Shown here: one piece after another, positions 30,040-33,518 of the stretch | How positions within the stretch are numbered: position 1 is the stretch's first letter | Layout of the letters: the number at the start of each line of letters is the position of its first letter | Assembly (NCBI GenBank): GCA_013368325.1 | Contig: JAACJK010000058.1 | Coordinates: 310,001-374,000 of the forward strand | Length of the DNA stretch: 64,000 nucleotides | Direction: 5' to 3' | Origin: Ephemerocybe angulata | Taxonomy: Eukaryota > Basidiomycota > Agaricomycetes > Agaricales > Psathyrellaceae | Program-made: the position numbers and the translations under genes | Notes under the pieces: model-generated | The model's database searches: none | The model's input: the letters and a program-made list of their open reading frames with translations, nothing else | What the model was told of the DNA's origin: nothing

Positions 30040-32769
30040 ATGCTTAGAAGTCGCAGAGCCTCTCGACTCGAGTATATCTCCCTCAGGCAGCTGAAGAATG
30101 GCCGAATACCAATTCAGAGCAAGCGGGACCTGCTCACCACGTCCTTCACCAAAGGACCGCTCGAACCACCTCTGCTTCCACACACACTTCCGGGGTTTTG
30201 GAAGGACGAAATATTGGAGAAATACGGCTCAAGGCCAGCTCTCATAGCGCGCAGTGAGGAGCCTCGGGCGCACGGTGGGCCGGTGTCGAAGAACCTGGGT
30301 GTGACGCGACATTTGGCTTGGGATTACGAAGAGTTCAATAGGCATATCGACGCTGTTGCGAGGGGCCTCCTGGGGATGGGTGTAAGGAAGGGTGACAGGG
30401 TTGGAGTAATTATGGGCAATACGAGGTATGTGGTCGTGCTGTTCAGTTTCGGTCTTGGTGGACTAAAGTGAAGTGTAGCGCATATGCGACGTTGCAATGG
30501 GCATGTGCCAGTATTGGCGCGATCTTGACGACTATAAACCCTGCATATCGACTTCAAGAGCTTGTGAGTGCCTATTATATTGGTGCAGATTATTTGTGCT
30601 GAAAATGATTCCAAAGGTGAATACTCTGAACCTCGTCCAGGTCAAGCACCTATTTGTCGTACCACGCATACGAAGCTCCGAATATGTGCGGATGATCTCA
30701 CAGACCTTCCCCGAGATGCGCAGTATGCAGCCAGGGGAGCTACAGCTTGAAGATCTGCCTGCTCTTCGGAATTTCGTGGTGGTTGACAATGCAGAGGAGG
30801 CCAAGGAGGATTTGGCAAAGCTTCATATCAAGAGCATGGTTGATTGGCGGGAGGTGCCCATCTGGAGAGAAGGGACAAGGGAGGCGAAGATGCAGAAGGA
30901 GATTGAGGAGGGATTGGATCCTGACGAGGTCATTAATTTGCAGTTTACGAGGTGAGGGTGCACTTCGACCGCGAAGGCCTTCCTGCTCACCTCACTCTGA
31001 TTGTAGTGGCACCACAGGACTTCCTAAGGCCGTTTCTGTGGGTTCCACAAAATTGAAAATGCGCATTGGTGCTCACTGATAGTGGGATAGCTAACACATA
31101 CTAATATCCTGAATAACGGCTACTTCATCGGCCGATGCATGAACCTAACCGACCAAGATATCGTTTGTACGTCTGCCGAAATTGACATTTTCCATCTACA
31201 ACGCCCCTGACGCTTTTTAGGCAACCCACCTCCCCTTTTCCACTGCTTTGATGAGTCGAGCCATTACCATGCCCTAAAGTCGTCCAACTTACCCCTGAGC
31301 ACGCCTTGTTCTAGGAAACCTCGCAGCCTGGACACACGGGTCCTGCATCGTCTACCCTTCAGCCATCTACAATCCGTCAGCAATTGTGGACGCCGTCACC
31401 CAGGAGAAGTGCACTGCCCTCCATGGCGTGCCCACCCATTTCCTCGGTGTCATGTCCGAGGTAGAGAAACGAAGGAAAGCTGGAGAGACTCTGGATTTCT
31501 CCAATCTCAGGTAGGCTTCCTGTATTGGGCATTTTGTACTAGTTATACTGATTGTGATGGTGGGTGGTGCTCTCCAGGACGGGCATAGCAGCGGGCACTT
31601 CAGTCCCTATTGACTTGATGAGGACACTGGTCTCCGACCTAAATCTGAAGGAATTAACGAATGCGTATGGAATGAGTGAGTCTGGTGGCTTCATGAATCA
31701 TACTTCCATACTTACGGCGTATACTTTCAGCCGAAACCAGGTAGCTGATATCGCCGTTGTCGGTACTGTATGTGCGAATCGCTGATAAGAACACCTTCAG
31801 CCCAGTATCTTTCCAGACCACCCCCGCCGACCCTTTAATCAAACGCGTTGAAACAGTTGGGAAAATCCATCCACACGTCACAGCCAAAGTTGTCAGCGAT
31901 AAAGGCGCCATCGTTCCGGTCAATACACCAGGAGAACTACATGTGTCAGGGTACCTCTTGCAGAAAGGGTGCGGTCCTTATTTCCTTGTCGTATTAAGTA
32001 TTAGCCAAGTCACTCAAAGCCATTGTTTCCTGGATATAGATACTGGGAAGACGAAGAGCACACAAATGCCGTTATGAAGAAAGATGAAACCGGGACACTT
32101 TGGATGCACACCGGTGATGAGGCTATTATGGACGAGGAGGGCTACGTAAGGAGTGCGTGCTTTGATCTTCTTACTGGTGAAGTTTTACTAACTCAAGGTT
32201 GGAATAGTCGTCGGTCGAGTGAAGGTGACAAACACGCTGAGCTTTTAATGTCGTCATCTTTTGCTAACTACATATGTTAGGACCTCATCATCCGGGGCGG
32301 CGAGGTGGGCGCTTAAAACTCACGTCATCGACTGGTATTGACCTTTACTTGCCTTCCCTTCAGAACCTCTTCCCGGTCCAGATCGAGAATATCTTAACAG
32401 AACATCCTGCAATACGGGAAGCTGCTGTAATCGCTGTGCCCGACCCTAAGTACGGAGAGACCGTCGGGGCGTGGATTGTACGTGAACCAGGTGCGCCGGT
32501 GCTGTCGAGGAAAGAAGTCAGAGAGTTGGTTCGAAAGAATATGAACCCGCAGGTGCGTATTGGCCCATATTTATGTGGTTTCAGCATGGGCTCATGAGGA
32601 CCGTTGGATCGTGCTTCTTCAGAATGCGCCGGCATGGGTGTGGTTTATTAACGAAGACGGTACCCCAGCTGAACTGCCCAAGACGGCGAGCGGAAAGGTG
32701 CAGAAACACATTTTGCGGATGTGGAGTAAGGTTTTGTGGGAGAACTCTATAGGGAAGGTGGATATCTAG
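30040..32769 (+). CDS. Acyl-CoA synthetase, ACSF2-like (AMP-binding enzyme)
   Basis: Predicted 639-aa adenylate-forming ligase that activates fatty (likely medium-chain) acids with CoA. The Arg-rich N-terminus MLRSRRASRLEYISLRQLK suggests mitochondrial import. Exons: 30040-30425, 30479-30563, 30617-30951, 31007-31037, 31091-31166, 31221-31250, 31303-31510, 31578-31675, 31731-31740, 31801-31968, 32040-32145, 32198-32224, 32281-32304, 32364-32552 and 32623-32769. Motifs: the ATP-binding TSGTTGLPKAVS, then PPPLFHCFGLVLGNLAAWTH (needs the AT-AC intron), AYGMTETSPVSFQTT (needs the 10-nt microexon), TGDEAIMDEEGYV, DLIIRGGENLFPVQIEN, and the C-terminal PKTASGKVQKHILR with the catalytic Lys. The phase closes over all 15 exons. 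The boundary giving GYVGIVVGRVK (exons 11-12) is one residue longer than the usual pattern and is the least certain. Confidence 0.88.
31251..31302 (+). other. Apparent U2-type AT-AC intron in the acyl-CoA synthetase gene
   Basis: This 52-nt intron begins ATGAGT and ends AC. It is the only removal that joins CF to the conserved GLVLGNL motif in frame. No usable GT donor lies nearby, and reading straight through breaks the frame. The donor looks like a normal GTGAGT with G changed to A at position +1. It lacks the ATATCC donor and TCCTTAAC branch of U12 introns. An alternative AT-AG use, with AG three nt earlier, keeps the frame but replaces the conserved Gly with Ala-Arg. Confidence 0.65.
31731..31740 (+). 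other. 10-nt microexon in the acyl-CoA synthetase gene
   Basis: A CTTTCAG acceptor, ten bases (CCGAAACCAG) and a GTAGCT donor lie between two ordinary introns (31676-31730 and 31741-31800). Inclusion gives YGMTETSPVSF, the exact core motif of this enzyme family. Skipping it, or using other sites, loses the catalytic-region Glu. Confidence 0.75.
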
Positions 32770-33219
32770 CTCCGCGCGGGGTCGAAATGGGTAGACGACG
32801 TAACAGACTCGCCTTCAAGCTTCAGGGCGTGAACTTCGTCCACAGTCAGCTTGTTTCTTCCTTAGCTTCTGATGATTTACTCATGGTATCTCGCTTCGTA
32901 GATTCTGTGATGCCGTTGTTGTACATTGAAAGCAATACAGTGATAGTACAAGAACCATTTCTAACACGGTGCAATATTAATAGGTAGAGGTATGCAATGC
33001 ATGATGGGTAAGGTGCCTGGGAACTTGGCGTGCGAAGGTCGAAGGGGGTGCAGGTTGAGTTGTGGTTTGGGACTCCGAGGACGGGGACTGCTCCGTCAGA
33101 TGCGACAGGCAGTCAACAATCTTTAAACAGGACCATTAGACTGTGAATGTTGAAAGCAGGTAAGAAACTAGAAGACGTACTGATGTGTTCATGAAGCGTC
33201 GCTGGGGTGGGGATGGCAT
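32770..33219. other. Convergent intergenic region
   Basis: This 450-nt spacer lies between the acyl-CoA synthetase and the pheromone-like gene and presumably holds both 3' UTRs. I see no gene in it. Confidence 0.45.
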
Positions 33220-33426
33220 TCATGCAATAGTGCAGTATCCGCCGCTTCCCTGGCCACTGCCGGTTCCCTCCTCATCGGCGGGAATGTTGGCAGAGACGTC
33301 TTTGGCGAAGACGACACAGTAGCCACCGCTGCCCTGTCCGCTCCCGGTGCCTTCATTGTCGGAGGGGATGTCAGCGGCGGGGGCCTTGGAGGCGGGAGAG
33401 AAGGAGATGATGGTGAAGGAGTCCAT
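33220..33426 (-). CDS. CaaX-ending pheromone-like precursor with tandem peptide repeat
   Basis: A 68-aa single-exon protein starting MDSFTIISFSPAS and ending YCTIA, a CaaX box with terminal Ala that predicts farnesylation. The size, the MDSF start, the acidic middle and the Gly-rich C-terminal peptide ending in CaaX match mating pheromone precursors of mushroom-forming fungi. Such precursors are farnesylated, carboxy-methylated and cut to a short lipopeptide that binds a Ste3-type receptor. The 12-residue unit GTGSGQGSGGYC occurs twice (residues 26-37 and 54-65), each after an acidic site (DNE or DEE). The first copy is followed by VVFAK, the second by TIA and the stop. The two copies differ at several third codon positions but not in amino acids, which implies selection on the peptide. 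No receptor gene is in the window. It could also be a non-mating pheromone-like gene, which are common outside the B locus. Confidence 0.75.
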   Translation of the reverse strand: MDSFTIISFSPASKAPAADIPSDNEGTGSGQGSGGYCVVFAKDVSANIPADEEGTGSGQGSGGYCTIA

Positions 33427-33510: not shown

Positions 33511-33518
33511 ATATATAC
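33511..33518 (-). promoter_or_regulatory. TATA box of the pheromone-like gene
   Basis: ATATATAC read on the + strand gives GTATATAT on the gene strand, about 85-90 nt upstream of the ATG, followed by a CT-rich leader. This fits a highly expressed small gene. I found no convincing ACAAAGGG pheromone response element; ACAAAAG near 33554 is only similar. Confidence 0.5.

What the first reader, a model, noticed from the sequence alone, without database searches (positions are those of the whole stretch)
33220..33426. Pheromone-like lipopeptide precursor with two identical peptide units
A 68-aa single-exon gene has the layout of a mushroom mating pheromone precursor: MDSF start, acidic middle, Gly-rich peptide, CaaX end CTIA. 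It carries the 12-residue unit GTGSGQGSGGYC twice, each after an acidic cut-site-like DNE or DEE. The two DNA copies differ at about eight third codon positions with no amino-acid change, so the peptide has been conserved since an old duplication. Most Agaricomycete precursors have a single unit; repeated units recall the Rhodosporidium type, where an internal Cys motif is followed by Lys, as here (CVVFAK). A dual-peptide, partly CaaX precursor with no receptor gene nearby may be a new signalling form.
Basis: partly seen in the sequence, partly recalled or inferred. Interest (0 to 1): 0.8.

Follow-up and report, generated by a model that had tools for sequence, protein, structure and literature searches.

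The report
Two-copy mushroom pheromone-like peptide gene
This small inky-cap mushroom gene encodes two identical copies of a pheromone-like peptide in one precursor, and it belongs to a large family of mushroom genes in which the two copies usually match each other closely, which suggests that both copies are used as signals.

Summary
It is a 68-aa pheromone-type precursor (Pfam PF08015, 33.2 bits; cut-off 22) with GTGSGQGSGGYC twice and a CTIA end. The units differ at 8 synonymous and 0 nonsynonymous sites.

The genome is Ephemerocybe angulata (Psathyrellaceae). It holds at least 15 intact two-unit paralogues, one interrupted copy and two single-unit relatives. None found lies on the contig that carries all STE3 receptor matches.

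Of 148 distinct sequences collected by homology, 113 carry two or more units (one carries three), from at least three Agaricales families. The peptide differs between genes but is matched within a gene: 8.03 of 9 residues against 4.47 when shuffled. Synonymous sites between units are near saturation in E. angulata, so recent gene conversion does not explain the match.

The internal cysteine is followed by a CaaX-like motif.

Best reading: a tandem-unit variant of the known non-mating-type pheromone-like lipopeptides, with both units functional. How the internal CaaX is exposed is inferred, not shown. No transcript, mass or receptor data were available.

The parts
33220..33426 (-). CDS of the 68-aa two-unit pheromone-like precursor (stop codon included)
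   Evidence: PF08015 33.2 bits, cut-off 22
33316..33351 (-). Unit 1, GTGSGQGSGGYC (residues 26-37)
   Evidence: sequence; pattern hit C68:343316-343333 covers its GSGGYC
33307..33318 (-). Internal CaaX-like motif CVVF (residues 37-40)
   Evidence: the 113 two-unit proteins counted all have C[VT][VIAL][FASC] here, partly by construction of the search pattern
33301..33306 (-). Ala-Lys after the internal CaaX (residues 41-42), candidate cut site
   Evidence: C+5 is K or R in 65 of 113; function inferred
33268..33315 (-). Linker and spacer VVFAKDVSANIPADEE, removed in the proposed processing
   Evidence: pN/pS 0.34 between same-type genes for both the VVFAK stretch and the rest of the spacer
33232..33267 (-). 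Unit 2, GTGSGQGSGGYC (residues 54-65)
   Evidence: sequence; pattern hit C68:343232-343249
33223..33234 (-). Terminal CaaX box CTIA (residues 65-68)
   Evidence: sequence; terminal X is A in 111 of 113
33512..33517 (-). TATA-like element 91 bases upstream of the ATG
   Evidence: pattern TATA[AT]A within 250 bases upstream in 11 of 15 paralogues; no shuffle control was run
33141..33180 (-). Predicted 3' UTR intron (GTACGT...CAG, 40 bases; a later AG is possible)
   Evidence: signature after the stop in 14 of 15 paralogues; mean 1.6, maximum 5 at control offsets; coordinates read

Best explanation
The gene encodes a tandem precursor of a Gly-rich, probably farnesylated pheromone-like peptide. 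It belongs to a multigene, non-mating-type family of Agaricales. Shown: two units per precursor, both under strong purifying selection in E. angulata, usually matched within genes, not on the contig of the STE3 receptors, with a CaaX-like motif after each unit. Inferred: the C-terminal CTIA is farnesylated, trimmed and methylated in the usual way; the precursor is cut near the acidic pairs (DNE/DEE) before each unit; and it is cut or trimmed after the internal CVVF so that unit 1 also becomes a prenylation substrate. One transcript would then give two molecules of the same lipopeptide. Six of the 15 intact genes carry GTGSGQGSGGYC in both units and a seventh in unit 2, so this may be a dose-raising design for a general, non-mating-type signal, perhaps read by one of about six STE3-type receptors.
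For: PF08015 over cut-off. Fifteen intact two-unit genes. Within-gene matching in E. angulata: 66 of 75 residues (first five of the right-aligned last 12) against 28.9 shuffled, 0 of 10,000 shuffles as high. In 80 non-redundant unit pairs of the wider family: 8.03 of 9 against 4.47 shuffled; in a stricter shuffle within 14 groups (63 pairs) 8.00 against 6.91; 0 of 5,000 as high in either; 40 of 80 pairs identical over these nine residues. Low pN/pS in both units. The STE3 matches found are on C117 only. Known precedents: Gly-rich non-mating-type peptides with EE/DE cut sites; tandem precursors with CaaX-like spacers.
Against: No transcript, mass-spectrometry or receptor data. No known protease explains the cut after the internal CaaX: the window protein has no dibasic site, and the basic residue is not general in the family. 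In HPP1, another repeat precursor, the Kex2 sites were not essential (PMC3068285 passage). Ten of 80 unit pairs match in 6 or fewer of 9 residues; in E. angulata L021 is clearly mismatched and L004 and L006 differ by one residue. P0126 has Ser in place of the unit 1 Cys (by eye), and P0054 and P0056 look degenerate. The shuffles do not fully correct for shared ancestry. Only 4 of the 10 proteins tested pass the PF08015 cut-off.
Confidence: 0.65

Rival explanations
1. Only the C-terminal unit becomes a lipopeptide; unit 1 is released without a lipid or acts as part of the propeptide.
For: Only the C-terminus presents a free CaaX; no protease is known for the internal site. The enzymes for the comparable rhodotorucine precursor were also unknown in PMC3068285 (passage).
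Against: Unit 1 is nearly as constrained as unit 2 (pN/pS 0.08 and 0.05) and follows unit 2 in sequence across genes. Internal C+3 is F, A, S or C in the 113 counted, although the pattern would also have allowed V or G.
Confidence: 0.2
2. The units match because gene conversion or repeat turnover within a gene homogenises them, not because selection keeps both.
For: The peptide type changes jointly in both units. An old conversion at the time of a type change, followed by synonymous saturation, is not excluded.
Against: Within-gene synonymous divergence is near saturation (pooled pS 0.72, pN 0.026), higher than between same-type genes (0.63 for unit 1, 0.50 for unit 2). Codons at shared residues agree in 88 of 171, against 95.7 expected at random.
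Confidence: 0.2
3. The product is one two-headed peptide (both units left joined, a single C-terminal lipid) that engages a receptor bivalently.
For: It would need no cut at the internal motif.
Against: An acidic cut-site-like pair precedes each unit in this protein; spacer length and sequence vary; one relative has three units (P0007).
Confidence: 0.08
4. A degenerate or chance repeat ORF without function.
For: Five public gene models of E. angulata copies cut into or remove the second unit (P0002, P0003, P0010, P0021, P0022).
Against: Purifying selection, at least 15 intact copies and a spread over several Agaricales genera. In the two cases read by eye (P0002, P0010) the model continues at the acceptor of the predicted 3' UTR intron, which suggests a misplaced donor.
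Confidence: 0.03

Closest known systems
[quoted passage not shown] cinerea consensus GGGSGNGAYC, L. bicolor GGGSGNNAYC, A. bisporus genes; PMC8305134 section 3.5)
   Same: MDS/AF start, charged cut site such as EE or DE, Gly-rich peptide of about 11-13 residues, CaaX end; EST-supported 3' UTR intron in three of four A. bisporus genes.
   Different: The A. bisporus precursors are 44-54 aa and are described with one mature peptide each; here 68 aa with two matched units and an internal CaaX-like motif. The C. cinerea hit P0119 has one unit.
Rhodotorucine A precursor of Rhodosporidium and tandem RHA2 genes of red yeasts (PMC3068285 passages; PMC3236058 passages)
   [quoted passage not shown] in S. 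salmonicolor and S. johnsonii only synonymous changes were seen in RHA2.A1.
   Different: Those are mating-type genes of red yeasts; here a dispersed multigene family with no STE3 match on the same contig. From memory, Lys follows the CaaX directly there; here it sits one residue later and is often absent in the family.
MFA1 of cereal rusts, with Microbotryum cited for the same feature (PMC10977897 passages)
   Same: Several similar peptide repeats in one precursor.
   Different: Associated with the receptor STE3.2-3, though at variable and often large distance; the repeats within one precursor differ (the second is species-specific).
h-type precursor HPP1 of Trichoderma reesei (PMC3068285 abstract and passages)
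   Same: Repeated Cys motif with a CaaX at the C-terminus.
   Different: Ascomycete, three copies, Kex2 sites (not essential for its function); no dibasic site here.

Membership tests
PF08015 fungal mating-type pheromone | Profile score over the curated cut-off | tested here: met
   33.2 bits, cut-off 22. Of ten related proteins tested, 4 pass; paralogues L022 and L026 (19.2 and 17.5) and the receptor-linked L031 (20.2) fall below.
PF08015 fungal mating-type pheromone | Short precursor, MD-S/A-F start, CaaX end | tested here: met
   68 aa, MDSF, CTIA
Mating-type (B locus) pheromone | Linked to an STE3 receptor gene | tested here: not met
   All 19 STE3 matches found are on C117; none on C68, C65 or C77 (counts are lower bounds)
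Non-mating-type pheromone-like peptides of Agaricomycetes | Gly-rich peptide ending in C, charged cut-site pair, CaaX end, away from mating receptors | tested here: met
   description
Non-mating-type pheromone-like peptides of Agaricomycetes | Farnesylation and secretion of the peptide | not testable with these tools
   needs mass spectrometry
Rhodotorucine-type tandem precursor | Tandem units separated by CaaX-like spacers | tested here: met
Rhodotorucine-type tandem precursor | Basic residue at the internal cut site (recalled) | tested here: inconclusive
   CVVFAK in the window; K or R at C+5 in 65 of 113
h-type precursor (HPP1) | Three motif copies and Kex2 dibasic sites | tested here: not met
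   two copies, no KR, KK or RR in the protein (by eye)
Kex2-processed repeat proteins (KEP) | Signal peptide and repeats separated by Kex2 sites (definition in PMC7329392) | tested here: not met
   no dibasic sites (by eye); no signal-peptide program was run

The most novel reading that the evidence does not exclude
Mushrooms of the order Agaricales carry a widespread, overlooked class of tandem lipopeptide precursors in which an internal CaaX box is freed by an unknown protease and prenylated. Both units in a gene change specificity together under selection, without DNA homogenisation, so that each gene keeps emitting one pure signal.
Probability: 0.45. Interest if true: 0.72.

Novelty: new variant of a known kind. 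Interest (0 to 1): 0.55.

Why it matters
What non-mating-type STE3-like receptors of mushrooms do is an open question in print (PMC8305134 passage; PMC8970355 passage). A large family with two usually matched units says that the exact peptide matters to the fungus, and it names concrete peptides to test as ligands. It is also a natural system for how an internal CaaX box might become a prenylation substrate; PMC3068285 states that the enzymes for rhodotorucine were unknown. One mining rule in use treats hits over 200 bp and/or distant from STE3 genes as false positives (PMC8970355); it would drop these genes.

Tried and rejected
Plus-strand reading of the interval: rejected. The plus-strand query also finds the paralogues (14 matches, 44-70% identity apart from itself), as the mirror of the coding strand. 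The minus-strand query matches better (up to 89%), passes PF08015 and gives the CaaX ends.

Lys-directed (rhodotorucine-like) cutting as the general rule: rejected for the family, kept as possible for the window gene.

A five-residue prenylation motif (CVVFA) was considered from memory. The paper search on it held no paper, and one distant relative with His at that position (P0070) speaks against it.

Codons of the two units avoiding each other: weak only. In the QGSGGYC part 57 of 105 codons are the same against 64.5 shuffled (P = 0.023); after dropping two near-duplicate genes 50 of 91 against 55.7 (P = 0.054).

Promoter motif for an HMG-box factor: scattered hits in the upstream regions, no pattern by eye.

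Pattern for the linker over the genome: 31 matches against 50 for the reversed control, so not specific. The GSGGYC pattern gave 43 against 9.

A first regular expression for ORFs missed most copies and was replaced. The count (63 rows, two of them duplicates) is superseded.

In one search the two-unit class was found by a pattern that itself requires a CaaX-like internal motif, so the agreement there is partly by construction. Of the 19 rows classed single, P0086, P0120 and P0123 show by eye a second unit with T, N or P at internal C+3, P0126 has lost the unit 1 Cys, and P0054 and P0056 look like degenerate multi-unit copies. Sixteen rows without a counted terminal CaaX were left out (among them gene models that lose the end and P0132, which runs on), as were two duplicates (P0012, P0024). 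P0070, a distant match (E 0.39), is inside the 113.

Structure prediction was not run: the peptide is short and Gly-rich.

Full report
What is there. The interval holds, on the minus strand, a 68-aa ORF, MDSFTIISFSPASKAPAADIPSDNE-GTGSGQGSGGYC-VVFAKDVSANIPADEE-GTGSGQGSGGYC-TIA. It scores 33.2 bits against Pfam PF08015 (cut-off 22); the two other families listed there are below their cut-offs. The two units differ by 8 synonymous and 0 nonsynonymous changes. A sequence comparison with solved structures gave one match at E 1.6.

Organism. Protein hits named Ephemerocybe angulata with D9611 tags lie on contigs of 177,160 and 567,892 bases (P0003 and P0012), the exact lengths of G000 contigs C65 and C77. 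The species is in Psathyrellaceae, Agaricales. The genome has 58.67 Mb in 232 contigs.

Family within the genome. A genome search gave 19 matches at E up to 10 (a lower bound). Reading the frames gives 15 intact two-unit genes including this one, two halves of one interrupted copy (C143), and two single-unit relatives (C125). The intact ones sit on C68 (3), C65 (3), C77 (6), C154, C57 and C64 (1 each). The peptides fall into a few types: GTGSGQGSGGYC, DPGNGQGSGGYC, TNKQGSGGYC, TEQIDQGSGGYC and the mismatched pair TEPIDQ.../TEVTGQ... (L021). All 19 STE3 matches found lie on C117 and group by position into about six genes, with single-unit pheromone-like ORFs near some of them (L031, L033, L030).

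Wider family. Three protein searches, together with the genome ORFs, gave 148 distinct sequences. Of these, 113 have two or more units with a terminal CaaX (one, P0007, has three), 19 were classed single and 16 were set aside. One search scored only part of its candidates and listed 120 of 153 matches, so the set is a sample. Named sources of two-unit proteins include Ephemerocybe, Coprinellus, Candolleomyces, Coprinopsis marcescibilis, Tricholomella, Lyophyllum, Sphagnurus, Termitomyces, Tephrocybe, Collybia, Tricholoma, Pholiota and Hebeloma. Lineages were looked up for four species, giving Psathyrellaceae, Lyophyllaceae and Clitocybaceae. Many rows come from sources without organism names. 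Of ten members tested, 4 pass the PF08015 cut-off, so a Pfam scan alone finds only part of the family.

Matching of units. In E. angulata, 66 of 75 compared residues (the first five of the right-aligned last 12, in 15 genes) agree within genes, against 28.9 when unit 2 is shuffled among genes (maximum 59 in 10,000). In the wider family, 80 non-redundant pairs agree in 8.03 of 9 positions, against 4.47 shuffled (maximum 5.01 in 5,000). Shuffling only within groups that share the internal X residue and the unit tail gives 8.00 against 6.91 (63 pairs, 14 groups, maximum 7.29). Forty of 80 pairs are identical over these nine residues; ten match in six or fewer. Related genes are not independent, so these shuffles overstate significance; the stricter one reduces this but does not remove it.

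Not recent conversion. Pooled over the 15 genes, within-gene pS between units is 0.72 and pN is 0.026; single-gene values are noisy, with 6 to 9 synonymous sites each. Between six genes of the GTGSG type pS is 0.63 (unit 1) and 0.50 (unit 2). The unit duplication therefore looks older than the split of these genes. Codon agreement at shared residues is 88 of 171, against 95.7 at random. An old conversion at the time of a type change is not excluded.

The internal motif. Among the 113, internal C+1 is V in 112; C+2 is V in 101; C+3 is F in 63, A in 40, S in 9 and C in 1; C+5 is K in 46, R in 19, S in 19 and T in 19. So a CaaX-like tetrapeptide is kept after the internal Cys, while the next residues vary. 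The search pattern itself required a CaaX-like motif, which makes part of this circular; three rows with T, N or P at C+3 were missed by it. That F, A, S and C are accepted CaaX end residues is general knowledge, not a tool result.

Gene structure. A TATA-like element lies at -91; the same pattern occurs in 11 of 15 paralogues. A splice-site signature follows the stop in 14 of 15, against a mean of 1.6 and a maximum of 5 at control offsets. This fits the 3' UTR introns supported by ESTs in A. bisporus. Five public E. angulata models lack part or all of unit 2 and the CaaX end (P0002, P0003, P0010, P0021, P0022). In the two read by eye (P0002, P0010) the model continues at the acceptor of that downstream intron, which suggests a misplaced donor. 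A real alternative splice form cannot be excluded without RNA data.

Known work. Seen as passages or sections only: PMC8305134 (section 3.5 and passages), PMC3068285 (abstract, outline and passages), PMC7329392, PMC8161036, PMC3236058, PMC12387193, PMC12786890, PMC8686365, PMC10977897, PMC11077750, PMC5100862, PMC5473757, PMC3140503 and PMC8970355 (passages). Tandem precursors are in print for Rhodosporidium and other red yeasts, cereal rusts (with Microbotryum cited there) and some ascomycetes. In the listings of the ten answered paper searches and the passages read I saw no report of matched two-unit precursors in Agaricomycetes. The library lacks most subscription journals, including reviews cited by PMC8305134, so this is weak evidence of novelty. 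UniRef already labels some relatives 'Pheromone'.

Verdict. A real, conserved, two-unit pheromone-like precursor: a new tandem variant of the non-mating-type pheromone-like peptides. Release of both units is likely; prenylation of unit 1 and its route are inferred.

Noticed in passing
G000 C143:76276-77785 (L019, L024): A further two-unit copy is interrupted inside unit 1 by an insert of about 1.3 kb whose ends are imperfect inverted repeats containing CACTATG.
   Followed up: partly
P0002, P0003, P0010, P0021, P0022: Five public gene models of E. angulata copies lack part or all of unit 2; P0002 and P0010, read by eye, continue at the acceptor of the predicted 3' UTR intron. Database proteins of this family can therefore be wrong.
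   Followed up: partly
G000 C117:1917959-1987201 and C117:415165-416139: The STE3 matches found (about six receptor genes) lie here, with single-unit pheromone-like ORFs L031, L033 and L030 (the last ending CTIC) near some of them: the first stretch is the likely B mating-type region.
   Followed up: partly
P0007: An unnamed-source relative with three identical units (GDGTSGSGGYC) and two internal CaaX-like motifs.
   Followed up: no
P0070: A distant two-unit precursor (E 0.39) with ER before each unit and internal CTIAHS, possibly an independent tandem duplication.
   Followed up: no
window 33220-33426 and 14 paralogues: Codons of the two units are slightly less alike within a gene than when shuffled (P 0.023; 0.054 after dropping near-duplicates). 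Possibly a hint of selection against repeat instability; weak.
   Followed up: partly
window 30040-32770: Upstream plus-strand ORFs look by eye like an exon-split AMP-binding acyl-CoA synthetase-like gene; not tested.
   Followed up: no
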